Below, piece by piece: positions 5,320 through 29,757 of a stretch of DNA of 37,616 nt (position 1 is the first letter of the stretch; the number at the start of each line of letters is the position of its first letter). The notes below the pieces were generated by a model, which made no database searches, was not told the origin of the DNA, and saw nothing but the letters and a program-made list of their open reading frames with translations. Where the stretch lies: assembly GCA_017433295.1 (NCBI GenBank), contig JAFRHL010000018.1, positions 1 through 37,616 on the forward strand, in the 5' to 3' direction. The stretch is from Eubacterium sp. Lineage in GTDB: Bacteria; Bacillota; Clostridia; Lachnospirales; Lachnospiraceae. A program made the position numbers and the translations under genes.

Positions 5320-6933
5320 TTATTCCATCTCTATCGTCCCCGGCGGCTTGCTGGTGAGATCATAGAATACTCTGTTGACGCCTTTTACTTCATTGATGAT
5401 CCGGCTCATGACCGTCTGCAGCACTTCAAAGGGGATATCCGCCGCTTCTGCTGTCATGAAATCTATGGTCTTTACTGCCCGGAGGGCCACGGCATAATCG
5501 TAGGTCCTCTCATCTCCCATGACTCCCACGGACCGCATATTGGTCAGGGCGGCAAAATACTGGTCCGGCATCCAGGGCGGTCTTACCGCACCGGTACCGC
5601 CTTCTTCCTTCTTCTCCCCCATTCCGGAGCGGCTTTCTCTCCAGGCCCTGGCTGCCTTTCCGATTTCTTCCCGGTAAATGGCGTCGGCGTCCTGAACCAT
5701 GCGGACCTTGTCGGCAGTGATATCTCCCACAATGCGGATACCCAGTCCGGGACCGGGGAAGGGCTGGCGGAATACCAGATACTCAGGTATACCCAGCTTA
5801 AGCCCTGCCTTCCTGACTTCATCTTTAAAGAGATCCCGCAGGGGTTCGATGATTTCCTTGAAATCTACATAATCGGGCAGGCCTCCCACATTGTGGTGGG
5901 ATTTGATGACGGCTGACTCTCCGCCCAGGCCGCTCTCCACCACATCCGGGTAAATGGTTCCCTGCACCAGATAATCCACAGCGCCGATCTTCTTTGCTTC
6001 CTCTTCAAAAACCCGGATAAACTCTTCCCCGATGATCTTCCTTTTACGTTCCGGTTCGTCCACGCCGGCCAGTTTGATATAGAAGCGGTCCTGGGCATTT
6101 ACCCGGATAAAATTCAGATCGTACTCACCTGCCGGACCGAAGACTGCTTCCACTTCGTCTCCTTCATTTTTACGAAGAAGGCCATGATCCACAAACACAC
6201 AGGTAAGCTGCCTGCCCACCGCTTTAGACAGCAGGACTGCCGCCACGGAAGAATCTACACCGCCGGAAAGAGCGCAGAGGACCTTTCCTTTTCCTACCTT
6301 TTTCCGGATGGCTTCGATGGATGTCTCCACAAAGGAATCCATCTTCCAGTCACCGGAGCAATGGCATACATTATATACAAAATTACTGAGCATTTCTTTT
6401 CCCCGAAGGGTATGTAAGACCTCGGGATGGAACTGGATGGCATAAAGATTCTTCTCCCTGTTCTGGGCGGCTGCCACCGGACAGTCCCTGGTGTGGGCGC
6501 AGATGGAGAAACCGGGTGCAACACGGGAAATATAATCAAAATGACTCATAAAACAGCTTGTGGTCTCCTCTACTCCGGTAAAAAGCGGAGACTCGGGATC
6601 CACATATACTTCCGTCTTTCCGTATTCCCGCACCCGGGCCCGTTCCACTTTGCCTCCCAGCAGATGCATCATGAGCTGGGCGCCATAGCATAATCCCAGC
6701 ACCGGGATCCCCAGGTTGAAAAGCTCCCTGCTGTAAGTGGGCGCGTCCTCCTCATAACAACTGTTGGGGCCGCCGGTCAGGATGATTCCCTTCGGATTGA
6801 TCTGCCTGATCTTTTCAATGTCGGTCTTATAGGAGTAGATCTCGCAGTATACATTGCATTCCCTGACCCGCCGGGCAACCAGCTGGTTATACTGACCTCC
6901 GAAATCTATTACTATTACGGTCTCTCTTTTCAA
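5320..6933 (-). CDS. guaA: GMP synthase (glutamine-hydrolysing)
   Basis: Converts XMP to GMP using glutamine and ATP in purine biosynthesis (cytosol). The order is classic: class I glutamine amidotransferase with Cys82 (GLCYGAQ) and His169/Glu171 (FHPE); ATP pyrophosphatase with P-loop SGGVDSS (223-229); and the C-terminal dimerisation domain ending [13 protein letters not shown]. At 537 aa it is longer than the usual 510-525 because of a charged insertion at about residues 429-456 ([16 protein letters not shown] region) replacing the short loop before [21 protein letters not shown]. The start is TTG at 6933, eight bases from GGAGG; no better ATG exists upstream. A 54-base repeat shared with the uvrA leader lies directly upstream. 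Monocistronic, with its own terminator. Confidence 0.97.
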
Positions 6934-18947: not shown

Positions 18948-19526
18948 CTAAGCATCCTCCAGTATTCTCCGGGCCGCCCTCCTTCTGCTGATCCCATTGT
19001 CCATGGCCTGCTTTCCGATCAGCCGGTGGGCCTCGTTTTCAGTCATATGCCTGCTCTCCATCAGGAAGAACTTTGCCTTGTTTACGATCCGCATTTCCTC
19101 CATCTTTTCTTCTGCCGCCTGTCTCTTTTTCTCCAGAGCGTGCATCCTGTCCTGCACAGCATAAAGGTATCTCAAAGCGGTTTCCGTCCGTCCCCGGGGA
19201 GCAGGGTTGGGGATCACGAGGACGCCATGATCCGTAACACGGTCCAGGGCGTTCTTAAATGCATCCGCAGGCACGACAAGAAGGACGGAGGCGCTGCATT
19301 TTTCCGTCACATCTATGGCAAAATCCTCTCCTGTCTCGTCCGGCAGTGGTGCCTTGATCGCCACGAGATCATAGTACCTTTCCAGAATACAGCGACGGGC
19401 CCCTGCCGCGCTTTTTTTCACGTCCACCGTGGCAAAGCCCCGGATGGTCTTTTTCACCGCCTGTTCAAATCCCCTGGAGGAGGATACAATCAATATGGAA
19501 TGGTAGTAGTCATCTTTTTTAGGCAT
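18948..19526 (-). CDS. ANTAR-domain RNA-binding antiterminator with degenerate receiver
   Basis: 192 aa. Residues 8-115 have the receiver fold, but the acidic pocket is ILIVSSS (residues 15-17 Ser) and the phospho-acceptor position is Lys58 (YDLVAIKAPLP), so it cannot be phosphorylated in the normal way. A charged coiled coil (about 125-147) leads to a C-terminal ANTAR domain (about 147-190; VNKAKFFLMESRHMTENEAH, then RRRAARRIL). ANTAR proteins such as AmiR, NasR and EutV bind paired small hairpins in leader RNAs and block terminators; several control nitrogen genes. The gene starts 11 bases after the glutamine synthetase homologue with GAGGAGG. Candidate targets lie upstream of the amt and PEP-binding genes in this same cluster. 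Confidence 0.9.
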   Translation of the reverse strand: MPKKDDYYHSILIVSSSRGFEQAVKKTIRGFATVDVKKSAAGARRCILERYYDLVAIKAPLPDETGEDFAIDVTEKCSASVLLVVPADAFKNALDRVTDHGVLVIPNPAPRGRTETALRYLYAVQDRMHALEKKRQAAEEKMEEMRIVNKAKFFLMESRHMTENEAHRLIGKQAMDNGISRRRAARRILEDA

Positions 19527-19537
19527 AAACTACCTCC

Positions 19538-20713
19538 TCAGATCCTTGTATATGCTTTGATGATCTCCTCCGGAACGATCCCCTGTACAAAGCTGCTCCT
19601 GGCGGCCAGTCCCGCTGCTTCCTTCCTGGAGCCGGGCAGATGGGCCGCCTCATGATCCATCTCCTCTGGAAGCTCCCGTTTCTCTTTTATTCCCAGAAGC
19701 CCGGCATGAATGAGCAGGGCATAGACCAGATAGGGGTTGCCGGAGGCATCCGGACTTCTCAGCTCTGCCCTGGTTCTGCCCTTGAAGGTTTCTATATACA
19801 TCATCCCGGATTCAACGGCACTGGACCAGTTTACCTTATCCGGGGCAGTATTGATGCCGAGCCTGGCATAGGAAGCATCCGTGGGGTTTAAAAAGACGGT
19901 GATATCCCTGATCTTATCGATGATCCCCGCAGCGGCATGGCGTACCACATCATTTCCCTCCCCGTCAACCGCGTAAATGTTGATGTGATAGCCGTTTCCC
20001 GGCTGGTCCGCCAGGGGCATGGGGGAAAAATCAGATACCAGACCGTAGCGGTCGGCGATGGTGCTTACCACCATCTTAAAGGTTGTCATCTGGTCCGCGG
20101 CCTTCAGGGGCCTGGCATAATGGAAATCTATCTCATTCTGTCCGGGGCCGCTTTCGTGGTGGGACCTTTCCGGGGTCAGGCCCATACTTTCTATGGTGAG
20201 AGAAATCTCACGTCTTACATTTTCACATTTATCCAACGGGGCAATATCCATATATCCGGCCTGATCATAGGGGATCCTGGTGGGATTTCCCTCTTCATCC
20301 CTGGTGAACAGATAAAATTCTGTCTCGGTACCGAAGCGGAATTCGATCCCGGCATCCGCCGCTGCCTTCACTGCTTTTTTCAGGATGGCCCTGGTATCAG
20401 ACACATATTCCTCTCCGTCCGGCGTGAACACATTGCAGAACATGCGAAGCACCCTGCCGCTGTCCGGTCTCCAGGGCAGGATGGCCATGGTATCCGGATC
20501 CGGCTTCAGAAAAAGGGCGGCATGGGGGCAATCCTCAAACCCCCTTATTTTTCCGGCATTGATCCTGATGCCGTCTTCAAATGCCTTTTTTATTTCACTG
20601 GTCATGACGGAAATGTTTTTCTGGACGCCAAATGCATCGCGAAAAGCCAGACGGATAAACTTGACGTCTTCTTCTTCAATAAACTTCATCACTTCGTCAA
20701 ATGTATAGTTCAT
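19538..20713 (-). CDS. Divergent, short type I glutamine synthetase homologue
   Basis: 391 aa against about 440 for usual GlnA. The N-terminal beta-grasp (FIRLAFRDAFGVQKNISV) and catalytic blocks GTETEFYLF, ESGPGQNEIDFHY, GNGYHIN and RAELRSPDASGNPYL are recognisable. The segment equivalent to the conserved NRSxxIRIP motif reads SSAVESGMMYIETF, so two substrate-binding arginines appear to be missing, and the C-terminal helical region is shortened. It could be an active specialised synthetase or ligase, or a sensor. It sits 15 bases after carB and 11 before the ANTAR gene; CAGGAGG supports the ATG. An ANTAR gene beside a glutamine synthetase fits nitrogen control. Confidence 0.85.
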   Translation of the reverse strand: MNYTFDEVMKFIEEEDVKFIRLAFRDAFGVQKNISVMTSEIKKAFEDGIRINAGKIRGFEDCPHAALFLKPDPDTMAILPWRPDSGRVLRMFCNVFTPDGEEYVSDTRAILKKAVKAAADAGIEFRFGTETEFYLFTRDEEGNPTRIPYDQAGYMDIAPLDKCENVRREISLTIESMGLTPERSHHESGPGQNEIDFHYARPLKAADQMTTFKMVVSTIADRYGLVSDFSPMPLADQPGNGYHINIYAVDGEGNDVVRHAAAGIIDKIRDITVFLNPTDASYARLGINTAPDKVNWSSAVESGMMYIETFKGRTRAELRSPDASGNPYLVYALLIHAGLLGIKEKRELPEEMDHEAAHLPGSRKEAAGLAARSSFVQGIVPEEIIKAYTRI

Positions 20714-20728
20714 GATGGCCTCCTGTAT

Positions 20729-23700
20729 TTATATGACACTGATCCTGGGGGAAATGTCTTCCAGCACATCCAGCAGTATTTTCACCGTGTCAAGGGAAGT
20801 GAACATGGTAATCCCGTTCATTATAGCACATCTGCGGATCTCCACTCCATCATTATAATGGATTCCCGAGAGAATTGCCCTGGTATTTATGATATAGCTG
20901 ACATAGCCTGCCCGGATGGATCTCAGGATCTCGTCGCTCCCTTCGCTGATCTTTCCCCTTATGCGGGTCCTGATCCCATGGTCCTTTAAAAAGGAGCCGG
21001 TTCCCACCGTGGCCTCAATATTAAATCCCAGTTCGTAAAAACGCCGGATCAGAGGAAGGGCCTCCTCCTTGTCCTCATCCGCCAGGGTAACCATGACCGT
21101 TCCGTATTCCTTCATCCTGACCCCGGATGCCTGCAGAGCCTTGTAAAGAGCCCTGTTAAGACTCCTGTCATATCCGATGGCCTCTCCCGTTGACTTCATT
21201 TCCGGTGACAGGTAAGCGTCCATCCCGTTTAACTTTTCAAAAGAAAATGCCGGCGCCTTTACATACCAGAAATCCTTTTCGGGTCTTATCAGGTCGGCAA
21301 AGCCCTGACTTTCCAGACTCCGGCCCAGCATGACCCTGGTTGCTATCTTCACCAGAGGCACCCCTGTCACCTTGGAGAGGAAGGGCACGCTTCTGGATGC
21401 CCGCGGATTTACTTCTATGATATAAACATTTTCATCATCATCCACAATGAACTGGATATTATAGAGTCCCCGGATGCCGATCCCCAGGCCCAGCTTCCTG
21501 GTATAGTCCCATATCGTCTCCTTCACCCGGCCGGATATGGAAAAGGGCGGATATACGCTGATGCTGTCGCCGGAATGGACTCCGGTACGCTCCACCAGCT
21601 CCATAATGCCCGGCAGAAAAACGCTCTCTCCGTCACAGACCGCATCGATCTCCACTTCCTTGCCCACGATATATTTATCCACCAGGACAGGTCTGTCCTT
21701 GTCCACCTCCACCGCATTTTTCAGGTAATGGACCAGCATATCTTCATTGGCCACGATCTCCATGGCCCTGCCGCCGAGAACGTAGGAAGGTCTTACCAGG
21801 ACCGGATAGCCGATTTCCCCCGCTGCTTTTATGCCATCTTCGATATTTGTGACGGCGATCCCTTCGGGATGGGGGATCCCAAGCTTCCTTATGACATTTT
21901 CAAATGCGTCCCGGTCCTCGGCCTTAAAGATCGCTTCCGTGTCGGTTCCGATGATCTTAACACCCTTCGCGGCCAGGGACTCTGCCAGGTTGACCGCCGT
22001 CTGCCCTCCCAGGGTCGTGATGACTCCCAGCGGCTTCTCCAGGTCCACGATATTCATGATATCCTCCACGGTCAGTGGTTCAAAGTACAGCTTGTCGGCT
22101 GTCGTATAGTCCGTTGAGACCGTTTCCGGATTATTGTTGATCACGATGGCTTCATATCCCATATCGTGGATGGTTTTCACTGCATGAACGGTGGAATAAT
22201 CAAATTCCACACCCTGTCCTATCCGGATGGGACCGGAACCGAGCACGATGATCTTTTTATTCTCTGAGACGATGGACTCGTTCTCCTCCTCATAGGTGGA
22301 GTAGAAATACGGCACATAGCTTTCAAATTCACTGGCGCAGGTATCGATCATCTTGTACACGGGATGTATGTCATATATTCTCCGGAGGGCAAAGATATCC
22401 TCCTCCCGGCAGCCCACAAGCTCGGCGATATAAGAATCGGAAAATCCTTTTCTTTTGGCTTCCAGCAGAAGCTCCTTCTCCAGCACGGGGCCTTCATCGG
22501 GTCTGCGGTTTTTACAGGTCTCCTCCAGTCTGATCTCAAAATCGACGATGATCCGGATCTTATCCAGGAAGAACATATCGATCTTTGTTCTCTGGTAGAT
22601 CTCCTGGGGATCCGCCCCCAGCCACAGAAGCTCTGAAATGGCATAGATCCTGTCGTCGGTTCCTTCTTCGATATATTTAAGGAGCTTTTCTCGGGCCTCT
22701 TTCCTGCCGGCTTCCCCCTCCTTGTCTGAAAGGCTCTTCACATCAAACTTTTCCAGATGAATATGGTTCTTCCCGTCTTCCAGGGACCGGATGGCCTTCA
22801 GCAGGCTCTCCTCCATGGTCCGGCCGACGCTCATGGTCTCCCCGGTGGCCTTCATCTGGGTGGAAAGCACATTGGATGCCAGGGTGAACTTGTCAAAGGG
22901 GAATCTGGGCATTTTTGTTACCACATAATCCAGGGCCGGTTCAAAACAGGCCGGCGTATTGGCAAGGGGGATCTCGTCGAGATTCATGCCCACGGCGATC
23001 TTGGCGGACACCCTGGCAATGGGATAGCCGCTTGCCTTGGACGCCAGGGCCGAGGACCTGGATACTCTGGGATTTACTTCTATCACATAATAATCAAAGG
23101 ATTCCGGATCCAGGGCAAACTGCACATTGCAGCCTCCCCTGATCTCAAGGGCACGGATGATCTTTAAGGCGCTGTCCCGCAGCATATGGTATTCTTTGTT
23201 GGTCAAAGTCTGGCTTGGTGCCACCACAATGGAATCCCCGGTATGGATGCCCACCGGGTCCAGGTTTTCCATGTTGCAGACAGTGATGGCCGTATCATTT
23301 CCGTCCCTTATCACCTCATATTCGATTTCCTTATAACCTTTGATGCTTTTTTCCACCAGAACCTGACCCACCGGGGACATACTCAGGGCAGTTTTCATTT
23401 TTTCCCGCATCTCCCCCGGCTCCAGGGCAAATCCGCCGCCGGTCCCGCCAAGGGTAAAAGCGGGACGTAAAATGACGGGATAGCCGATGGCCCCGGCCGC
23501 CTCCAGCCCTTCTTCTATGCTCTCTGCAATGGCGGAGGGCACGACCGGTTCCTTTAAGCTCTCGCAAAGCTCCTTGAACTCTTCCCTGTTCTCTGCTTTC
23601 CGGATACTCTCTGCGCAGGTTCCCAGAAGCTCTATCTCACACTCATCAAGAACTCCTTTTTCATAGAGCTGGAGGGACAGGTTCAGGCCCGTTTGCCCTC

Positions 23701-23971
23701 CGATTCCGGGAACAACGGCGTCGGGTCTCTCATATCGGCAGATCCGGGCCATGTATTCCAGGGTCAGGGGTTCCATATATACCTTATCCGCTATGGAATG
23801 GTCCGTCATGATGGTGGCCGGATTGGAATTGGCCAGGATCACCTCATACCCCTCCTCTTTCAGGGCAAGGCAGGCCTGTGTCCCGGCATAATCAAACTCC
23901 GCCGCCTGACCGATCACGATGGGGCCGGAGCCTATGACAAGAATTTTTCTAATGTCAGTTCGCTTTGGCAT
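20729..23971 (-). CDS. carB: Carbamoyl-phosphate synthase, large subunit
   Basis: 1080 aa, normal length. Makes carbamoyl phosphate from ammonia delivered by CarA, bicarbonate and two ATP, for pyrimidines and arginine. Both halves show the duplicated start: LVIGSGPIVIGQAAEFDYAG (about residue 11) and IIVLGSGPIRIGQGVEFDYS (about residue 570), each with an ATP-grasp fold (VIEVNPRVSRSSALASKASG and IIEVNPRASRSVPFLSKVTG). The C-terminal allosteric MGS-like domain follows (about 940-1080). The start at 23971 is nine bases from GGAGG and overlaps the end of carA by 17 bases, implying coupled translation. Confidence 0.98.
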   Translation of the reverse strand: MPKRTDIRKILVIGSGPIVIGQAAEFDYAGTQACLALKEEGYEVILANSNPATIMTDHSIADKVYMEPLTLEYMARICRYERPDAVVPGIGGQTGLNLSLQLYEKGVLDECEIELLGTCAESIRKAENREEFKELCESLKEPVVPSAIAESIEEGLEAAGAIGYPVILRPAFTLGGTGGGFALEPGEMREKMKTALSMSPVGQVLVEKSIKGYKEIEYEVIRDGNDTAITVCNMENLDPVGIHTGDSIVVAPSQTLTNKEYHMLRDSALKIIRALEIRGGCNVQFALDPESFDYYVIEVNPRVSRSSALASKASGYPIARVSAKIAVGMNLDEIPLANTPACFEPALDYVVTKMPRFPFDKFTLASNVLSTQMKATGETMSVGRTMEESLLKAIRSLEDGKNHIHLEKFDVKSLSDKEGEAGRKEAREKLLKYIEEGTDDRIYAISELLWLGADPQEIYQRTKIDMFFLDKIRIIVDFEIRLEETCKNRRPDEGPVLEKELLLEAKRKGFSDSYIAELVGCREEDIFALRRIYDIHPVYKMIDTCASEFESYVPYFYSTYEEENESIVSENKKIIVLGSGPIRIGQGVEFDYSTVHAVKTIHDMGYEAIVINNNPETVSTDYTTADKLYFEPLTVEDIMNIVDLEKPLGVITTLGGQTAVNLAESLAAKGVKIIGTDTEAIFKAEDRDAFENVIRKLGIPHPEGIAVTNIEDGIKAAGEIGYPVLVRPSYVLGGRAMEIVANEDMLVHYLKNAVEVDKDRPVLVDKYIVGKEVEIDAVCDGESVFLPGIMELVERTGVHSGDSISVYPPFSISGRVKETIWDYTRKLGLGIGIRGLYNIQFIVDDDENVYIIEVNPRASRSVPFLSKVTGVPLVKIATRVMLGRSLESQGFADLIRPEKDFWYVKAPAFSFEKLNGMDAYLSPEMKSTGEAIGYDRSLNRALYKALQASGVRMKEYGTVMVTLADEDKEEALPLIRRFYELGFNIEATVGTGSFLKDHGIRTRIRGKISEGSDEILRSIRAGYVSYIINTRAILSGIHYNDGVEIRRCAIMNGITMFTSLDTVKILLDVLEDISPRISVI

Positions 23972-25055
23972 TTTCTCTGACCTCCTTCATGAGCTCCGTA
24001 AATTTACTGAAAAGATACCGGCTGTCCTGGGGTCCCGGCGCGCTTTCCGGATGATACTGGACGGAAAAGGCCCTGTCCTTTCTGCTCTCCACACCTTCCA
24101 CCGTATGGTCAAGAAGATTTACATGGGACACCGTAAGCCCGGTTCCGGCCAGAGATGCTTCATCCACCGCATAACTGTGGTTCTGGCTGGTTATTTCTAT
24201 TTTCCCCGTCCTCACATCCTTAACAGGGTGATTCCCTCCCCTGTGGCCGAATTTCAGTTTGTAGGTTTTTGCCCCGTAGGACAGGGCCAGAAGCTGATGT
24301 CCGAGACAGATCCCCAATACCGGCATCTTTCCCCTCAGCTGTTTTAGAGTCTCGATCACTTCCGGCACGTCCGTCGGATCTCCCGGCCCGTTTGAGATAA
24401 AGAGGCCGTCAGGATGCAGGGCAAGGATCTCTTCACTGCCCGTATGGAAGGGAACGATGGTCACATTGCACCTGTGCTGATTGAGCATTCTAACAATATT
24501 CATCTTCATGCCGCAGTCCACCGCCACTACATTATAAAGGGGGTTTGATGTTCTGCTGTACCATTTCTTCCTGCAGCTGCACCTTTTCACCGCGTCATGG
24601 GGAACAGGGGTCCTGGCGATCTCCTCAAGGCCCCGGGCGGCAGTCATTTCCATATCCGTGATAATGCACCTTCTGGAACCCAGGTCCCTGATGCTTCTGA
24701 CCAGCTTTCTGGTGTCAACCCCGGATATACCGGGTACTCCTCCCTCCTCCAGCAGCTCCGGCAATGTCTTTGCCCACCTGAAATTGGAGGGGTTGTCATT
24801 GATATCCCGGACGATCAGGGCCGACGGCGCAATGATCCTGCTTTCAAAATCCTCATCGCAGATACCGTAATTCCCGATCAGGGGGTAAGACATGACCACG
24901 GCCTGGTCCGTATAGGAGGGGTCGGAGACGATTTCCTGATAACCCGCCATGGATGTGTTAAATACGATTTCACAAACCCTTGTACACCTTGCTCCAAAGC
25001 CTGTTCCGGGAATTTCGGTTCCGTCCTCCAGAATCAGCTTTCTGTCAAATTCCAT
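23955..25055 (-). CDS. carA: Carbamoyl-phosphate synthase, small subunit (glutaminase)
   Basis: 366 aa. The N-terminal CarA domain has LEDGTEIPGTGFGA and NTSMAGYQEIVSDPSYTDQ; the C-terminal class I glutamine amidotransferase carries the Cys nucleophile in PVLGICLGHQLLALSYG, SQNHSYAV, and the His/Glu pair in QYHPESAPGPQD. It releases ammonia from glutamine for CarB. It begins 46 bases after the PEP-binding gene; AAAGGAG precedes the ATG. The gap contains no convincing terminator or PyrR/T-box leader, so carAB probably depends on the upstream promoter. Confidence 0.97.
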   Translation of the reverse strand: MEFDRKLILEDGTEIPGTGFGARCTRVCEIVFNTSMAGYQEIVSDPSYTDQAVVMSYPLIGNYGICDEDFESRIIAPSALIVRDINDNPSNFRWAKTLPELLEEGGVPGISGVDTRKLVRSIRDLGSRRCIITDMEMTAARGLEEIARTPVPHDAVKRCSCRKKWYSRTSNPLYNVVAVDCGMKMNIVRMLNQHRCNVTIVPFHTGSEEILALHPDGLFISNGPGDPTDVPEVIETLKQLRGKMPVLGICLGHQLLALSYGAKTYKLKFGHRGGNHPVKDVRTGKIEITSQNHSYAVDEASLAGTGLTVSHVNLLDHTVEGVESRKDRAFSVQYHPESAPGPQDSRYLFSKFTELMKEVRENAKAN

Positions 25056-25101
25056 ATGTATCTTTCTCCTTTGATTATATCGGGGTCCTGCCGACGCTTG
25101 C

Positions 25102-27699
25102 TTAATGGGATGCCGGCGCCTCCCTGAGAATGAGCAGCTTCTCCCTTTTCAGATCGTGGTACAGCCGGCAGCCTCTGCCTTCTGTATCAAATACTTTTAT
25201 GATATCACCTGCATAATTCTTTTCTTCATCCTCGGCAAATTCCTGAGAAATATCAGGAAAATGATCAAGTATCTCCGGCCGCCATATGGTGGTTTTTTCA
25301 TTGGAGAAAACGGCGGTATAGAGTATTTCCGCCTCCACCAGGTCCTGGAAGAAATGACTCCCATAGGATAATTCCGGATTATAACCGGCGGTTTTTTCCT
25401 CCACCTCACATATAACCTCAAATCCGCTGATATCCGCAAAGGTGGTGGGCACACCCAGCTCCGGGGAAGAGGTCCCGATGCGGCCCGGCACGATCAGCAT
25501 CAGCTTTTTTTCTTTTTCCCTGTAGACCCAGTTGATCCTGCGGATAAAGTCCGCGATCCTGGGTTTTTCATTATATGGCATCTCATAATAGGCTTTGGGG
25601 TCAACATATACGATCCTGTCTATGGTAAGATTACGGGACAGTCCCATGGAAGAGCCTTCGCTTTCCAGAATGATCGTATCCTCCGGTATATTCCACGGTA
25701 TGGCGGCAGTCCCGGTATCCTTCAGGGCCTGCAGGGGACGGCACTGGAGAAGGTTGATCAGATACTCCCCGTTATCTGCCAGGTTGATGGTATATTCAAT
25801 GTCCACCGGATGCTCATATTCCTTTTCAAGAGTTCCCATGATCCTCTGCATAAGTCCCATCAGTTCCTTATTCTTTACCAGGCCGGCACAGGAAATAAAC
25901 CGGATATCCCGTCTGGTCCCCCGCTCCCTGAATCTTCTCTCCGCCTCGTAATCATGTTCCAGCAGTGCCTTTGCAAGGTAGGATGGCAGATGGGGCAGCA
26001 GCTCTTTTATATCCAGACGAGTCAGGCAATGTCTGGACACATCCATGGCCTCGACTCTTTTCTGGGAATACTGATGCTTCTCTGCGATCGTTGTGCTGGG
26101 CGAAGCTTCCGGATCCTCCAGGCTCACCAGCCTGGGATAGGACCCCTCCGTGCGGTCAACAGCCGATGTCCCCAGACCCATCACAAGCCTTAACATGCCT
26201 GCGGCCGGGTCTATTTTTGCGAGGAATTTATAGGGACTGTAGGAATAGCCGACCCCTGCGGCGCAGGGCATATAATAAGCCCCGTAGTAGGATCCCGATA
26301 CTCTCTGGATCAGAAGCGACATCTGTTCATCCCTCTGGTCAAGGCCTCTTCTTCTCCGGTAGTCAAGGGCGGAAAGTCCCATGGAGCTGGCATAGACCCT
26401 GCGGACTGCATCCTCGAACTCTTTAAGTCTTTCTTCCAGGGTACCTCTGTTTGCGCAGAATACCGATTCATACTTTCCGGCGAAGGCATTGCCAAATCCG
26501 TCCTCCAGAATACTGCTGGAACGGACTATATAAGGATCCTGGCCATAATATTCCAGAATACTCCTGAAACGATCTTCCATTTCCTCCGAAAACTCTCCCT
26601 TCTTCAGCCGTTCGGACAGCTCCTCCGCAAGGGTAAAATATTCATCTTTCCTTCTCTGCCTGATACGCAGATCCCAGAAGCCGTTATCTACAATATATGT
26701 ATAGTAAACATCAGACCCTATGAAAAATGAATCATGGGGTTCCATGTAAGTATCAATCTCCGGTGCCCTGTTCCTAATGATTGCCCTGGCAAGCAGCATT
26801 CCGCAGGCTTTTCCGCCAACCATTCCCGTTCCGATCATGTGATTGCGGACATTAAAATAATCTTCCGGCTTAAAATGCTCCTTAACCAGGCTGCGCATCT
26901 TTGCATCCCTGGTCATCATGATGCGGCACATGGTACCGCAGGCTTCATCCATATCCATCTGGTTATCATACAGGACCCTGGCTGAATTAAAGAAACGGTC
27001 CCAGGAGTCAATGAACTGTTCCTCCCCTGCCCTTTTATAATTCCCCAGCAGCTGATAAAAACGGCTGGCCCGGACCCCGTCCAGGATCGGCCTGAAGCTT
27101 CCATCCTTTTTGTTGTAAATATGAGGCAGGAACATGGTCTCCGAATTTCTCTCCCAGACCTTGGAAGGCCGGACACAGATCAGATCGCCGTCAGAATATA
27201 CATCCAGAAAGAGCTGGGTCGTATTGGATATTTTTTCGACGGCATGGAAGGAGTGCTTTCCGCGGATAATGGGGAAAAAGGCCACTGTATCCAGGATAAA
27301 AAGAAAAGGACATGTCACACGAAAGAAATTACCCATCATCAGGTCCGTAGCCCAGGCAGTCTGCAGTTCGGACAGGCAGTCAAACACATAAAAAGCATCC
27401 CGGCCTTCTCTCTCAATGATATTGTGGATCTCCACCGTAAATGTTTCAAAGCGGTGTGACAGAGGGATATGATATGTTTTGATCTCAGGACAATCCTCAA
27501 CCAGCGGCTCATGGCTGGCGAACCGGAAATAAATGATATTCCTTTCATCCTTCCTGGCCTGTTCTATGTAGGGGTCTACAAAAAGCTTAAACTCTGAAAG
27601 ATCGGATACCCTCCAGACCACATTGTCCCCCAGCCTGATATGATCGAGTGCCTTATCCATATCAGGGATCCCTGATTTAACACGTTCAAAGGCTGCCAT
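25102..27699 (-). CDS. PEP/pyruvate-binding (PPDK N-terminal) protein with degenerate KaiC-like N-terminus
   Basis: 865 aa from ATG 27699, six bases from AGGAGG; the frame is open 21 codons further but that part is the leader. Residues about 8-190 resemble a RecA/KaiC fold (SGIPDMDKALDHIRLGDNVV, Walker-B-like AFYVFDCLSEL) but lack a Walker A lysine. From about residue 288 comes the ATP-grasp region of PEP synthase/PPDK: MVGGKACGMLLARA and YIVRSSSILEDGFGNAFAGK, continuing to LINLLQCRPLQAL. The phosphohistidine swivelling domain and the PEP-binding barrel are absent, so it cannot run the full PEP synthase reaction. The role is unknown. It heads the run to carAB, the glutamine synthetase homologue and ANTAR, behind a promoter with an attenuator-like leader. 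Confidence 0.8.
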   Translation of the reverse strand: MAAFERVKSGIPDMDKALDHIRLGDNVVWRVSDLSEFKLFVDPYIEQARKDERNIIYFRFASHEPLVEDCPEIKTYHIPLSHRFETFTVEIHNIIEREGRDAFYVFDCLSELQTAWATDLMMGNFFRVTCPFLFILDTVAFFPIIRGKHSFHAVEKISNTTQLFLDVYSDGDLICVRPSKVWERNSETMFLPHIYNKKDGSFRPILDGVRASRFYQLLGNYKRAGEEQFIDSWDRFFNSARVLYDNQMDMDEACGTMCRIMMTRDAKMRSLVKEHFKPEDYFNVRNHMIGTGMVGGKACGMLLARAIIRNRAPEIDTYMEPHDSFFIGSDVYYTYIVDNGFWDLRIRQRRKDEYFTLAEELSERLKKGEFSEEMEDRFRSILEYYGQDPYIVRSSSILEDGFGNAFAGKYESVFCANRGTLEERLKEFEDAVRRVYASSMGLSALDYRRRRGLDQRDEQMSLLIQRVSGSYYGAYYMPCAAGVGYSYSPYKFLAKIDPAAGMLRLVMGLGTSAVDRTEGSYPRLVSLEDPEASPSTTIAEKHQYSQKRVEAMDVSRHCLTRLDIKELLPHLPSYLAKALLEHDYEAERRFRERGTRRDIRFISCAGLVKNKELMGLMQRIMGTLEKEYEHPVDIEYTINLADNGEYLINLLQCRPLQALKDTGTAAIPWNIPEDTIILESEGSSMGLSRNLTIDRIVYVDPKAYYEMPYNEKPRIADFIRRINWVYREKEKKLMLIVPGRIGTSSPELGVPTTFADISGFEVICEVEEKTAGYNPELSYGSHFFQDLVEAEILYTAVFSNEKTTIWRPEILDHFPDISQEFAEDEEKNYAGDIIKVFDTEGRGCRLYHDLKREKLLILREAPASH

Positions 27700-27723
27700 G
27701 TCATTACCTCCTTCCCACCATAT

Positions 27724-27768
27724 CAAAAAAATACAAAAAGGCGCCCCGGAGTTAGTCTCCAAGACGCC
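27724..27768 (-). terminator. Leader terminator (attenuator) before the PEP-binding gene
   Basis: On the minus strand GGCGTCTTGGAG pairs along all 12 positions (including G-U) with CTCCGGGGCGCC around loop ACTAA, followed by TTTTTGTATTTTTTT. It lies between the promoter and the gene's ribosome site, so it would stop transcription unless prevented. The amt stop lies only about 60 bases upstream, so it also ends amt read-through. Confidence 0.8.
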
Positions 27769-27776
27769 ATTGTCTC
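27761..27776 (-). promoter_or_regulatory. Candidate ANTAR-target (antiterminator) hairpin in the PEP-binding gene leader
   Basis: RNA GAGAC-AAUGGC-GUCUU: five base pairs with a hexaloop whose A at position 1 and G at position 4 match the published ANTAR-target rule. Its 3' arm is the 5' arm of the terminator at 27724-27768, so the two structures exclude each other. A canonical second hexaloop hairpin was not found. Confidence 0.55.
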
Positions 27777-27787
27777 TTTAATTTTAA

Positions 27788-27816
27788 ATGATACCTTTTA
27801 ATACTGACCTTGTCAA
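27788..27816 (-). promoter_or_regulatory. Sigma-A promoter of the PEP-binding/carAB/ANTAR run
   Basis: On the minus strand: -35 TTGACA (27816-27811), 17 bp spacer, -10 TATCAT (27793-27788). Start near 27781. The spacer shares TCAGT and AAAAGG with the amt promoter, so the two upstream regions look duplicated. Confidence 0.8.
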
Positions 27817-27829
27817 GGTTTTTCCTCTT

Positions 27830-29590
27830 TTACTCCACATCCTGAAGGGCTGCATAGTTTTCTTCGCCGGTCCGGATCTTGACAACTCTGCTTACAGGAT
27901 ACACAAAGATCTTTCCATCTCCGATCTTTCCGGTATAAAGTGTTCTCTTGGCAGTCTCTATCACGCTGTCAACAGGTATCTTGCTGACCACCACCTCAAG
28001 CTTGATCTTCGGCAGAAGGGACATGTCCATCTCCACGCCGCGGTACATCTGCCCGGCACCCTTCTGAATGCCGCATCCTGTTACCTGGGTCACGGTAATT
28101 CCTGTTACGCCCAGCTCATTCAGGGCCTTCTTGATGCGGTCATAGCGAGATAATTTGGTGATAATGACAACCTTGTTGATTCCTGTATCGAGGCTTGTTC
28201 CCCTTACACTCTCCGAGGAGTTTTCTACGGGTACGGAAGCATTTCTCGCTGCCTGGCTTGCCTTTTCATAGTCTGTTACACCCAGACTTGTGTTCTCATT
28301 TGCCACCATGGCCGAACTTGTCATATCTACGATGGAAAAGCCGGCATAGGCAGAGGCAAGGCCATGTTCCATGACATCCAGTCCTTCTATCTCTTCCTCC
28401 TCTGAAACACGAAGTCCGAAAATGGCCCGGATCGCTGTAAAGACGATGGCCATACCAACTGCCGCCCAGGCTGCGACCGCAAGAAATCCCAGCAGCTGGA
28501 TCCCCAGCAGGTGGAAGCCTCCACCATAAAACAGTCCTTTTAAGCTGTCATTGCCGGGAGCGGTTGTGGTGGCAAAAAGGCCGACCGCGATGGTTCCCCA
28601 TATTCCGTTCATCATATGTACTGCCACCGCGCCCACAGGGTCATCAATGTGAAGCTTGTAATCAAGAAGCCAGACCCCGAAACAGACAAGCAGTCCGGCC
28701 ACAGTTCCGATCAGGGCTGCCCCGAGTGCATCGGTCACATCGCAGGGTGCCGTGATTGCCACCAGTCCGGCCAGGGAAGCATTTAAGCACATGGAAACAT
28801 CCGGTTTTCCGTATTTCAGCCAGGTAAAGATCATACAGGCCACGGTGGCCACCGATGGTGCGATGGTGGTCGTTACAAACACGCTGGCAAGCTGGTCCAC
28901 CGAGGTACATGCAGCCCCGTTAAATCCGTACCAGCCAAGCCAGAGGATAAATACACCCAGTGCTCCTATCACGATGTTATGCCCCGGAAATGCATTTACC
29001 TTAATAATCTTTCCACTTTCGTCCCTTTCAAATTTACCGATCCTGGGTCCTACCATCTTTGCCCCCACCAGAGCGGCAATACCGCCGACCATATGGATGG
29101 CACAGGAACCTGCGAAATCGTGGAAACCCATCTGTGAAAGCCATCCGCCGCCCCAGATCCAGTGGGCCTCAATGGGATAGATCAGGGCTGAGATCACTGC
29201 GGAATATACACAGTAGCTTAAAAACTTTGTACGCTCTGCCATGGCACCGGATACGATGGTAGCCGTTGTGGCGCAGAATACAAGGTTGAACATGAAATTG
29301 GACCAGTCAAAGCTGCCGTAATTTGTAAAAATATCAAATCCCGGCTTCCCAATAAATCCAAAAAGGTCCTCTCCCAGCAGCAGGCCGAATCCCAGCAGTA
29401 CAAAAACAACACAGCCTATACAAAAATCCATAAGGTTTTTCATGAGGATGTTGCCGGCGTTTTTGGCCCTGGCAAATCCCGATTCCACCATGGCAAAGCC
29501 CGCCTGCATCCAGAATACCAGTGCTGCTCCGATCAGAAACCAGACCGCAAAAAGCTCACGATCCAAAGCGCTCATAATTTCTTTACTCAT
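27830..29590 (-). CDS. amt: Ammonium transporter fused to a PII (GlnK-like) domain
   Basis: 586 aa from ATG 29590, seven bases from AAGGAGG (a nearer ATG at 29596 is too close). Residues 1 to about 415 form an Amt channel with about 11 helices and the twin histidines in AGSCAIHMVGG and GAVAVHMMNGIWG, ending EHGLASAYAGF. A Ser/Asn-rich linker (about 420-470) leads to a full PII domain (about 472-586): GITVTQVTGCGIQKG, T-loop with Tyr in YRGVE, LLPKIKLEVVV, TGKIGDGKIFVYPV. PII proteins normally sit on Amt as separate GlnK subunits and close it at high nitrogen; here channel and gate are one polypeptide. It has its own promoter and leader terminator. Confidence 0.95.
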   Translation of the reverse strand: MSKEIMSALDRELFAVWFLIGAALVFWMQAGFAMVESGFARAKNAGNILMKNLMDFCIGCVVFVLLGFGLLLGEDLFGFIGKPGFDIFTNYGSFDWSNFMFNLVFCATTATIVSGAMAERTKFLSYCVYSAVISALIYPIEAHWIWGGGWLSQMGFHDFAGSCAIHMVGGIAALVGAKMVGPRIGKFERDESGKIIKVNAFPGHNIVIGALGVFILWLGWYGFNGAACTSVDQLASVFVTTTIAPSVATVACMIFTWLKYGKPDVSMCLNASLAGLVAITAPCDVTDALGAALIGTVAGLLVCFGVWLLDYKLHIDDPVGAVAVHMMNGIWGTIAVGLFATTTAPGNDSLKGLFYGGGFHLLGIQLLGFLAVAAWAAVGMAIVFTAIRAIFGLRVSEEEEIEGLDVMEHGLASAYAGFSIVDMTSSAMVANENTSLGVTDYEKASQAARNASVPVENSSESVRGTSLDTGINKVVIITKLSRYDRIKKALNELGVTGITVTQVTGCGIQKGAGQMYRGVEMDMSLLPKIKLEVVVSKIPVDSVIETAKRTLYTGKIGDGKIFVYPVSRVVKIRTGEENYAALQDVE

Positions 29591-29609
29591 AGTCATACCT
29601 CCTTGTGAC

Positions 29610-29646
29610 AAAAGAAAAAGCGCCTTGAGAAAACTCTCAGGGCGCC
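29610..29646 (-). terminator. Leader terminator (attenuator) before amt
   Basis: On the minus strand GCGCC-C-TGAGA pairs with TCTCA-A-GGCGC around GTTT, followed by TTTTTCTTTT. It lies within 20 bases of the ribosome site and after the amt promoter, so it serves as a premature terminator for the gene itself. Confidence 0.8.
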
Positions 29647-29660
29647 GTTGCCTTTTACGG
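29645..29660 (-). promoter_or_regulatory. Candidate ANTAR-target hairpin in the amt leader
   Basis: RNA CCGU-AAAAGGCA-ACGG: four base pairs with an 8-base loop containing AAAGGC, similar to the AAUGGC loop in the PEP-gene leader. It lies directly 5' of the terminator and touches its 5' arm. The loop is not a strict hexaloop, so this is weaker than the other case. Confidence 0.45.
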
Positions 29661-29666
29661 TTTCTA

Positions 29667-29695
29667 ATCATAGCCTTTTAAACTGATGTTGTCAA
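29667..29695 (-). promoter_or_regulatory. Sigma-A promoter of amt
   Basis: On the minus strand: -35 TTGACA (29695-29690), 17 bp spacer, -10 TATGAT (29672-29667). Transcription would begin almost at the foot of the candidate hairpin, giving a short leader of about 70 bases. Confidence 0.8.
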
Positions 29696-29757
29696 ACATC
29701 CTTTTGATATCAATATGATACGCAAAATATATCGGGACCTTCCGTACATTCGTTTTT

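What the first reader, a model, noticed from the sequence alone, without database searches (positions are those of the whole stretch)
18948..29700. A self-contained ANTAR antitermination circuit for nitrogen and carbamoyl phosphate
The last gene of a minus-strand run encodes an ANTAR protein. Two genes of the same block (amt-PII at 29590 and the PEP-binding gene at 27699) each have TTGACA-17-TATxAT promoters, then a short leader with a small hairpin (loop core AANGGC) whose 3' arm feeds into a strong terminator. In the PEP-gene leader the hairpin GAGAC-AAUGGC-GUCUU obeys the A1/G4 hexaloop rule and directly excludes the terminator stem. Seen: promoters, hairpins, terminators, ANTAR domain. Known: ANTAR proteins (AmiR, NasR, EutV) antiterminate at such leaders, often for nitrogen genes. 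Inferred: this protein controls both leaders, and through the second one its own operon with carAB and the glutamine synthetase homologue.
Basis: partly seen in the sequence, partly recalled or inferred. Interest (0 to 1): 0.78.

Follow-up and report, generated by a model that had tools for sequence, protein, structure and literature searches.

The report
Single-hairpin ANTAR switch for nitrogen genes
Two nitrogen operons in this gut-type bacterium each start with one tiny RNA hairpin that can block a transcription stop signal, and an RNA-binding protein made from one of those operons, encoded beside a glutamine-synthetase-like gene, is the likely switch; the same one-hairpin design recurs across the Clostridia and is simpler than the two-hairpin switch described so far.

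Summary
Both leaders exist: 11/12 sigma-70 promoter, one AANGGC hexaloop hairpin, terminator that uses the loop's own GGC. One ANTAR gene and two such leaders were found in the genome, all in this block. In relatives the hairpin and the competing terminator both covary (82 matches: 92.5% and 97.4% of cells paired, 0/500 shuffles). Leaders track ANTAR genes: 92/241 ANTAR+ (training genomes left out) against 1/34 ANTAR- family genomes; class-wide 45/143 against 4/146. Downstream genes are mainly GSIII, glutamate synthase, amt/PII and other nitrogen genes. (1) The classical ANTAR target has two hexaloops; here there is one near the transcript's 5' end (upstream hexaloop in 2/191, chance 1.2). (2) The ANTAR gene lies directly downstream of a glutamine synthetase homologue (77/77 testable named loci); the receiver has lost its phospho-aspartate, and in the window this GS has lost catalytic residues. 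I propose that the GS homologue is the glutamine sensor that holds or releases the antiterminator. Binding, direction and signal are untested. New variant of a known kind.

The parts
29667..29695 (-). promoter TTGACA-17-TATGAT of the amt-PII operon
   Evidence: 11 of 12 consensus matches
29641..29652 (-). antiterminator hexaloop hairpin GGC(AACGGC)GCC, loop starting 17 nt after the -10 box
   Evidence: fold -3.8 kcal/mol
29619..29646 (-). intrinsic terminator whose 5' arm starts at loop position G4
   Evidence: fold -16.9 kcal/mol
27830..29590 (-). ammonium transporter fused to PII (586 aa)
   Evidence: PF00909 and PF00543
27788..27816 (-). promoter TTGACA-17-TATCAT of the second operon
   Evidence: 11 of 12
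27761..27776 (-). antiterminator hexaloop hairpin GAGAC(AATGGC)GTCTT, loop starting 16 nt after the -10 box
   Evidence: fold -4.1 kcal/mol
27740..27768 (-). intrinsic terminator, 12 pairs, shares loop GGC and the 3' arm of the hairpin
   Evidence: fold -21.5 kcal/mol
25102..27699 (-). PPDK_N (ATP/PEP-binding) protein, 865 aa, function not known
   Evidence: PF01326; a relative in L059 has its own leader
23955..25055 (-). carA, carbamoyl-phosphate synthase small subunit
   Evidence: TIGR01368 above cut-off
20729..23971 (-). carB, carbamoyl-phosphate synthase large subunit
   Evidence: TIGR01369 above cut-off
19538..20713 (-). glutamine synthetase homologue, 391 aa, catalytic positions changed; proposed sensor
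   Evidence: PF00120/PF03951; below the GlnA equivalog cut-off; residues
18948..19526 (-). pseudo-receiver plus ANTAR antiterminator protein, 192 aa, the only ANTAR gene found in the genome

Best explanation
A nitrogen antitermination circuit. RNA polymerase starts at a strong promoter a few bases before a single hexaloop hairpin. Left alone, the RNA folds into the much stronger terminator, whose 5' arm uses loop bases G4-G5-C6 and the 3' arm of the hairpin, and transcription stops after about 45 nt. When the ANTAR protein is free and dimeric it grips the hexaloop by the flipped-out G4, blocks terminator formation, and amt-PII and the PPDK_N-carAB-GS-ANTAR operon are transcribed, its own gene included (positive feedback from leaky read-through). 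Shown by sequence: promoters, two mutually exclusive covarying helices, single hexaloop, one ANTAR gene found, co-occurrence, GS-ANTAR pairing, receiver and GS with lost key residues. Inferred: that the ANTAR protein binds these leaders; that it is not phosphorylated but held or released by the neighbouring GS homologue acting as a glutamine (or glutamate/ATP) sensor; that read-through rises when nitrogen is short.
For: Covariation of the hairpin in 82 matches of a model that contains only the terminator pairs: 92.5% of cells paired, 87 double-change cells against 29.8 in shuffles, 0/500; terminator 97.4%. Leader against ANTAR presence at E<=1e-3: family 114/265 against 1/34, or 92/241 against 1/34 without the 24 training genomes; class 47/145 against 4/146, or 45/143 without two training genomes. 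Own genome: one ANTAR, two leaders. Gene content: GSIII, GltB, amt/PII, GDH, AsnB, CTP and GMP synthases. GS directly upstream of ANTAR in 77 of 77 testable named loci, 39 of 40 and 15 of 15 testable unnamed ones. EutV contact positions K149, E160, M172 identical in 41/41 and 16/16; Tyr164 is H, Y or F. Phospho-Asp kept in 3/41 and 0/16. Window GS: D50->N, N264->P, E327->T, R339->E, R344->Y; metal/substrate ligands kept.
Against: 98 of 265 ANTAR+ family genomes gave no leader match at E<=0.01 under strict filters. 6 of 34 ANTAR-less genomes matched at E<=0.01; one of them, G254 at 3.5e-4 with a GSIII gene downstream, looks real. 4 of 51 leader+ class genomes lack a detected ANTAR. G098 and, among close relatives, G221 have an ANTAR but no leader match at E<=0.1. 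The amt hairpin has only 3 clean pairs. EutV needs both hexaloops in vivo (PMC3369931 passages), so single-hairpin function goes against the best studied case. In some lineages (L134, L135, L138, L141) the partner GS keeps the catalytic motifs, so a dead enzyme is not a requirement of the pair. No physical evidence for a GS-ANTAR complex.
Confidence: 0.8

Rival explanations
1. The GS homologue is simply a nitrogen enzyme co-transcribed with its regulator; the ANTAR protein is controlled by something else (PII, a kinase, or its own amount).
For: The block carries a PII domain. Some partner GS copies keep catalytic motifs. Adjacency alone does not show contact.
Against: GS-ANTAR pairing is kept (77/77 testable) while the genes before it change, and the GS partner has lost motifs in the window clade and, differently, in L127, L129, L130 and L132. 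The genome has two further GS genes of about 714 aa. The receiver lacks the phospho-Asp in most relatives.
Confidence: 0.3
2. Classical dual-hexaloop ANTAR leaders in which the first hairpin was overlooked.
For: 20 of 117 promoter-anchored sites have a second C(AxxGxx)G hairpin 30-90 nt downstream, so some leaders are tandem. In 41 of 171 leaders the best-scoring promoter lies further up (23-115 nt before the loop), and 20 of 191 have none of 10/12 or better.
Against: Upstream hexaloop in 2 of 191 leaders chosen without regard to promoter, against 1.2 by chance. In 130 of 171 the loop is 9-22 nt after the -10 box. One search also found under 14 nt of room in 117 of 117, but that set was chosen with the loop 9-24 nt after the -10 box, so it says little. 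In the tandems of L043 and L050 each hairpin has its own terminator.
Confidence: 0.05
3. Attenuation without ANTAR: leader peptide, riboswitch, T-box or another antiterminator protein (for example BglG type).
For: The PEP-gene loop AATGGC happens to contain an ATG. G254 and four class genomes have leaders but no ANTAR detected.
Against: The ATG is absent from the amt loop and from most loops (71 of 117 are AAAGGC). The leader before the T-run is about 42 nt from the assumed start. No Rfam match at gathering score in the window. ANTAR co-occurrence is strong. BglG-type sites were dismissed from recall of their size, not tested.
Confidence: 0.05
4. Ordinary terminators between operons that happen to carry a small hairpin; no regulation.
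For: Terminators are common; promoter-like hits in the region do not exceed expectation.
Against: The terminators lie between promoter and gene; 37 hexaloop-terminator units against 0 in shuffles, two alternative covarying helices, and mostly nitrogen genes downstream.
Confidence: 0.02

Closest known systems
NitR of Clostridium saccharobutylicum / C. acetobutylicum (glnA-nitR-gltAB)
   Same: ANTAR protein said to antiterminate GS/GOGAT genes on nitrogen limitation (PMC6316151, one passage read; PMC4676874, one passage). The gene order in this row's name is recalled; the primary paper (PMID 17768251) is not held.
   Different: No single-hexaloop architecture, GS degeneration or GS-sensor role was seen in the passages read; wider regulon here (amt-PII, carAB, GDH, AsnB, CTP and GMP synthases).
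EutV/EutW of Enterococcus faecalis and the dual-hexaloop ANTAR target RNA
   Same: A1/G4 hexaloop, hairpin overlapping the terminator, conserved G4-contacting residues (PMC3369931 abstract and passages; PMC8934654 discussion and passages).
   Different: EutV is phosphorylated and its leaders need P1 and P2; here no P1 was found, the window protein has no phospho-Asp, and no kinase is its neighbour in the operon.
AmiC-AmiR and NasS-NasT
   Same: ANTAR proteins controlled by a partner protein, not by phosphorylation (AmiR: PMC8934654 discussion; NasT: start of the abstract of PMC3795266 in a search listing).
   Different: The partner here would be a glutamine synthetase homologue; the partner step is inferred. 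That AmiC and NasS are solute-binding-like is recalled.
Feedback-inhibited GS binding TnrA/GlnR in Bacillus subtilis
   Same: A glutamine synthetase acting on a nitrogen regulator by direct contact (TnrA: passage in PMC6316151; GlnR recalled).
   Different: DNA-binding target and active enzyme there; RNA-binding target and a GS with lost catalytic residues proposed here.

Membership tests
ANTAR proteins | ANTAR domain PF03861 above the curated cut-off | tested here: met
   51.5 bits against 27.3
ANTAR proteins | RNA-contacting residues of EutV (K149, E160, Y164, M172) | tested here: met
   K152, E163, M175 in 41/41 and 16/16; H/Y/F in place of Tyr164. R142 and R168 of EutV are not kept by the alignment
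Phospho-regulated receiver-ANTAR (EutV, Rv1626 type) | receiver with phospho-acceptor Asp | tested here: not met
   Receiver-like by profile (Rv1626 E=1.4e-19; Response_reg in 37 of 41 relatives at E<=0.1, not in the window protein) but K58 in the window and Asp in 3/41 relatives
Dual-hexaloop ANTAR target RNA | hexaloop with A1 and G4, stem of at least 3 pairs, overlapping a terminator | tested here: met
Dual-hexaloop ANTAR target RNA | second hexaloop P1 upstream with a short linker | tested here: not met
   2 of 191 leaders, 1.2 expected
NitR-type nitrogen antitermination | ANTAR gene next to glnA | tested here: met
   the glnA homologue itself has lost catalytic positions in the window
NitR-type nitrogen antitermination | leaders in front of GS/GOGAT genes | tested here: met
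   in relatives: GSIII, GltB; in the own genome only amt-PII and the car operon
NitR-type nitrogen antitermination | nitrogen-dependent read-through needing the ANTAR protein | not testable with these tools
   needs experiment
Rfam RNA families | match at gathering score | tested here: not met
   0 matches in the window

The most novel reading that the evidence does not exclude
Across Clostridia, nitrogen assimilation is run by an antitermination regulon in which a glutamine synthetase homologue, often degenerate, serves as the glutamine sensor and holds an unphosphorylatable ANTAR protein, released to act at a single hexaloop placed at the very 5' end of the transcript, so that one hexaloop suffices for ANTAR antitermination.
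Probability: 0.4. Interest if true: 0.85.

Novelty: new variant of a known kind. Interest (0 to 1): 0.72.

Why it matters
The 2022 EutV structure paper redefined the minimal ANTAR target as one hexaloop but left open how far single hexaloops are used (PMC8934654 discussion). Here are 191 candidate natural single-hexaloop antiterminators, most of them close behind a promoter, that make the question testable with short RNAs. The GS-ANTAR pair offers a candidate answer to how many gut and rumen Clostridia might sense glutamine for ammonium uptake, GSIII and GOGAT, and a case of an enzyme turned sensor.

Tried and rejected
Carbamoyl phosphate as the signal or phosphodonor: rejected, since the window receiver has no phospho-Asp, and Ramesh et al. 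saw no dimerisation of EutV with it (passage). The kinase/regulator pair at 31365-30118 and 32054-31386 as partner: set aside for the same reason, not tested. Other own-genome R1 matches: 5 listed at E<=10 (150 of 675 candidates scored), of which two are the leaders (both in the training set), one is the opposite strand of the amt terminator, and two (L077, L078) are terminators without the hexaloop. The relaxed scan is less clean than the strict one (55 against 14, 7 and 7). The room test was uninformative because of how its sites were chosen; one search replaced it. NCBIfam gave no hit for the ANTAR protein. Literature: ten searches of the open PMC library; in the listings and passages seen, nothing on a single-hexaloop leader or a GS-ANTAR partnership in Clostridia beyond NitR; subscription papers are not held. 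PMC8632094, PMC8164766, PMC2864571 and PMC3369936 were looked at by passages only.
Full report
What is there. The window is contig C6 of a 2.9-Mb, 91%-complete genome. Named relatives of its ANTAR gene are mostly labelled Lachnospiraceae, Blautia, Eubacterium or Clostridia, many of them rumen or gut assemblies. On the minus strand lie amt-PII (29590-27830), a PPDK_N protein (27699-25102), carA, carB, a 391-aa glutamine synthetase homologue and a 192-aa ANTAR protein. From the second leader to the ANTAR gene the stretch is fully covered by same-strand reading frames, consistent with one operon.

The two leaders. Each has TTGACA-17-TATnAT (11 of 12), then a hexaloop hairpin whose loop starts 17 nt (amt) or 16 nt (PPDK_N) after the -10 box: GGC(AACGGC)GCC at 29652-29641 and GAGAC(AATGGC)GTCTT at 27776-27761. 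The terminators (29646-29619 and 27768-27740) begin inside the loop at G4, so hairpin and terminator cannot coexist. Hairpins fold at -3.8 and -4.1, terminators at -16.9 and -21.5 kcal/mol, so termination should be the default.

Not chance. In the window and 40 neighbourhoods of related ANTAR genes (717 kb) a strict scan (AxxGxx loop, at least 4 pairs, overlapping terminator) found 37 against 0 in two shuffles; a relaxed scan found 55 against 14, 7 and 7. Without asking for pairing or a terminator, promoter plus AANGG gave 166 sites in 183 sequences (2.26 Mb) against 3, 4 and 5 in shuffles; 117 of the 166 form at least 3 pairs. Many of the other 49 may be the AAAGG of the 5' arm itself counted as a loop, which I did not count out.

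Covariation. On 35 leaders (selected by pairing, so biased for the inner three pairs) the 6-pair hairpin is 93.8% paired with 41 double-change cells, 0/500 shuffles. The terminator helix on the same rows is 97.4% paired. A few of the 82 rows are the opposite strand of the same palindromic terminator, and R1 knows the consensus letters of the 5' arm.

Link to the ANTAR protein. The genome search found one ANTAR gene and two leaders; the other three R1 matches at E<=10 are terminators without the hexaloop or an opposite strand. Among 299 family genomes, one per genus, PF03861 is absent from 34; R1 matches at E<=1e-3 in 1 of those 34 and in 114 of 265 with ANTAR (Fisher 8e-7); at E<=0.01, 6 of 34 and 167 of 265. 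Twenty-four of the 265 supplied training leaders; without them 92 of 241 against 1 of 34 (Fisher 9e-6). In an overlapping draw of 291 genomes of the class, 47 of 145 ANTAR+ and 4 of 146 ANTAR- genomes have a leader at E<=1e-3 (Fisher 2.5e-12), or 45 of 143 without two training genomes. With laxer filters 29 of 30 genomes holding a close ANTAR relative had a match at E<=0.1, but only 11 of those 30 are non-training genomes, of which 10 match; of 20 holding a more distant ANTAR, 18 match. G098 has an ANTAR domain and no match. Model E-values are rough, related genomes are not independent, and 98 of 265 ANTAR+ genomes gave no match at E<=0.01.

Regulon. First genes behind 74 leaders (of 86 found, after dropping those with both a poor promoter and a short stem) cluster into glutamine synthetases (29, mainly the ~698-aa GSIII), glutamate synthase or its 364-aa amidotransferase part (20), amt or PII (7), asparagine-synthase-like (6), PPDK_N (2), CTP synthase (2), GDH (2, tandem), an ATP-grasp protein (2, tandem) and three singletons; one had no frame. 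Representatives were named by profile: GSIII_N, glutamate synthase large subunit, NADP-GDH, asparagine synthase B, GMP synthase, CTP synthase, PII. Outside the family, 13 of 17 fetched class leaders lie in front of GSIII, judged by strand and distance of the match. Fifty-five of 121 ANTAR loci (overlapping sets) have a leader upstream in an unbroken same-strand run, although only 78 of the 121 hold 9 kb of upstream sequence: self-control is common.

One hexaloop, not two. The ANTAR target was defined as two hexaloop hairpins, both needed in vivo by EutV (PMC3369931, abstract and passages). Of 191 distinct leaders chosen by hairpin and terminator alone, 171 have a promoter of at least 10/12 within 160 nt; in 130 of these the loop is 9-22 nt after the -10 box, peaking at 14-16, and in 41 the best promoter lies 23-115 nt before the loop; an upstream hexaloop is present in 2 of 191 against 1.2 in shuffles. 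With a start about 7 nt after the -10 box (assumed) the hairpin begins within a few bases of +1. In 20 of 117 sites a second hexaloop hairpin lies downstream. PMC8934654 (discussion section and passages) redefined the minimal binding site as one hexaloop and left its use open; this family is a strong candidate for that use.

The protein. Profile A4 aligns along its length with Rv1626 and EutV; PF00072 is found in 37 of 41 relatives at E<=0.1 though not in the window protein itself. The phospho-acceptor position is K in the window, N in 34 and D in 3 of 41, and D in 0 of 16 distant members. Three positions that hold G4 or plug the loop in EutV (K149, E160, M172) are identical in all; Tyr164 is H, Y or F. 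So this looks like an RNA-binding protein with a pseudo-receiver, as in AmiR.

The GS partner. A GS homologue is directly upstream of ANTAR in 39 of 40 unnamed loci (the miss is cut by a contig end), 15 of 15 testable distant ones and 77 of 77 testable named ones. Against E. coli GlnA, metal and substrate positions E129, E131, E212, E220, H269, R321, E357 and R359 are kept in 51 to 55 of 55, but E327 in 7, N264 in 7, D50 in 33, R339 in 36 and R344 in 34 of 55; the window has N, P, T, E and Y at D50, N264, E327, R339 and R344 (roles of these residues are recalled). Some lineages (L134, L135, L138, L141) keep an intact-looking GlnA, while the window clade and, differently, L127, L129, L130 and L132 have lost motifs. 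The genome has two other GS genes of about 714 aa. The simplest reading is an old glnA-nitR pair in which the enzyme role passed to GSIII in some lineages while the partner role was kept. That the GS homologue binds the ANTAR protein and reports glutamine is my inference, modelled on AmiC-AmiR, NasS-NasT and GS-TnrA.

Known and new. ANTAR control of nitrogen genes, including amt, PII and glutamine synthesis, is known (PMC3369931 passages), and NitR is reported to antiterminate GS/GOGAT genes in Clostridium (review passage in PMC6316151; primary paper not held). New here, as far as ten searches of open papers show, are the start-anchored single-hexaloop design, its spread over Clostridia, and the constant pairing with a GS homologue that has often lost catalytic residues.

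Noticed in passing
L139:1364-1427 (G254:C43): A convincing leader with a GSIII gene downstream in a 99%-complete genome in which no ANTAR domain was found; either a missed ANTAR or another binding protein.
   Followed up: partly
L043:18597-18716, L050:15040-15165, L118, L090, L228, L236: Tandem modules: two hexaloop-terminator units in a row in front of one gene (20 of 117 sites have a second hairpin downstream; the L228 and L236 cases read by eye).
   Followed up: partly
window 29695-29667 and 27816-27788: The two promoter spacers share TCAGTnTTAAAAGG, perhaps a shared origin or an extra regulator site.
   Followed up: no
window 25102-27699; L059:10446-13069: PPDK_N protein with an unassigned N-terminal region of about 290 aa sits in the nitrogen regulon and has its own leader in L059; its role is unclear.
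   Followed up: partly
L227, L229, L233: Divergent leader pairs about 100-200 bp apart, one towards GSIII and one towards the 364-aa glutamate synthase amidotransferase protein.
   Followed up: no
L119:52-1362: Leader in front of a circularly permuted ATP-grasp protein, which is not an obvious nitrogen gene.
   Followed up: no
L113:1501-2147: The first frame found behind this leader encodes an IS200-like transposase, perhaps an insertion behind the leader.
   Followed up: no
window 5320-6933: GMP synthase in the same window has no leader match here, although a relative's guaA does (L103).
   Followed up: partly
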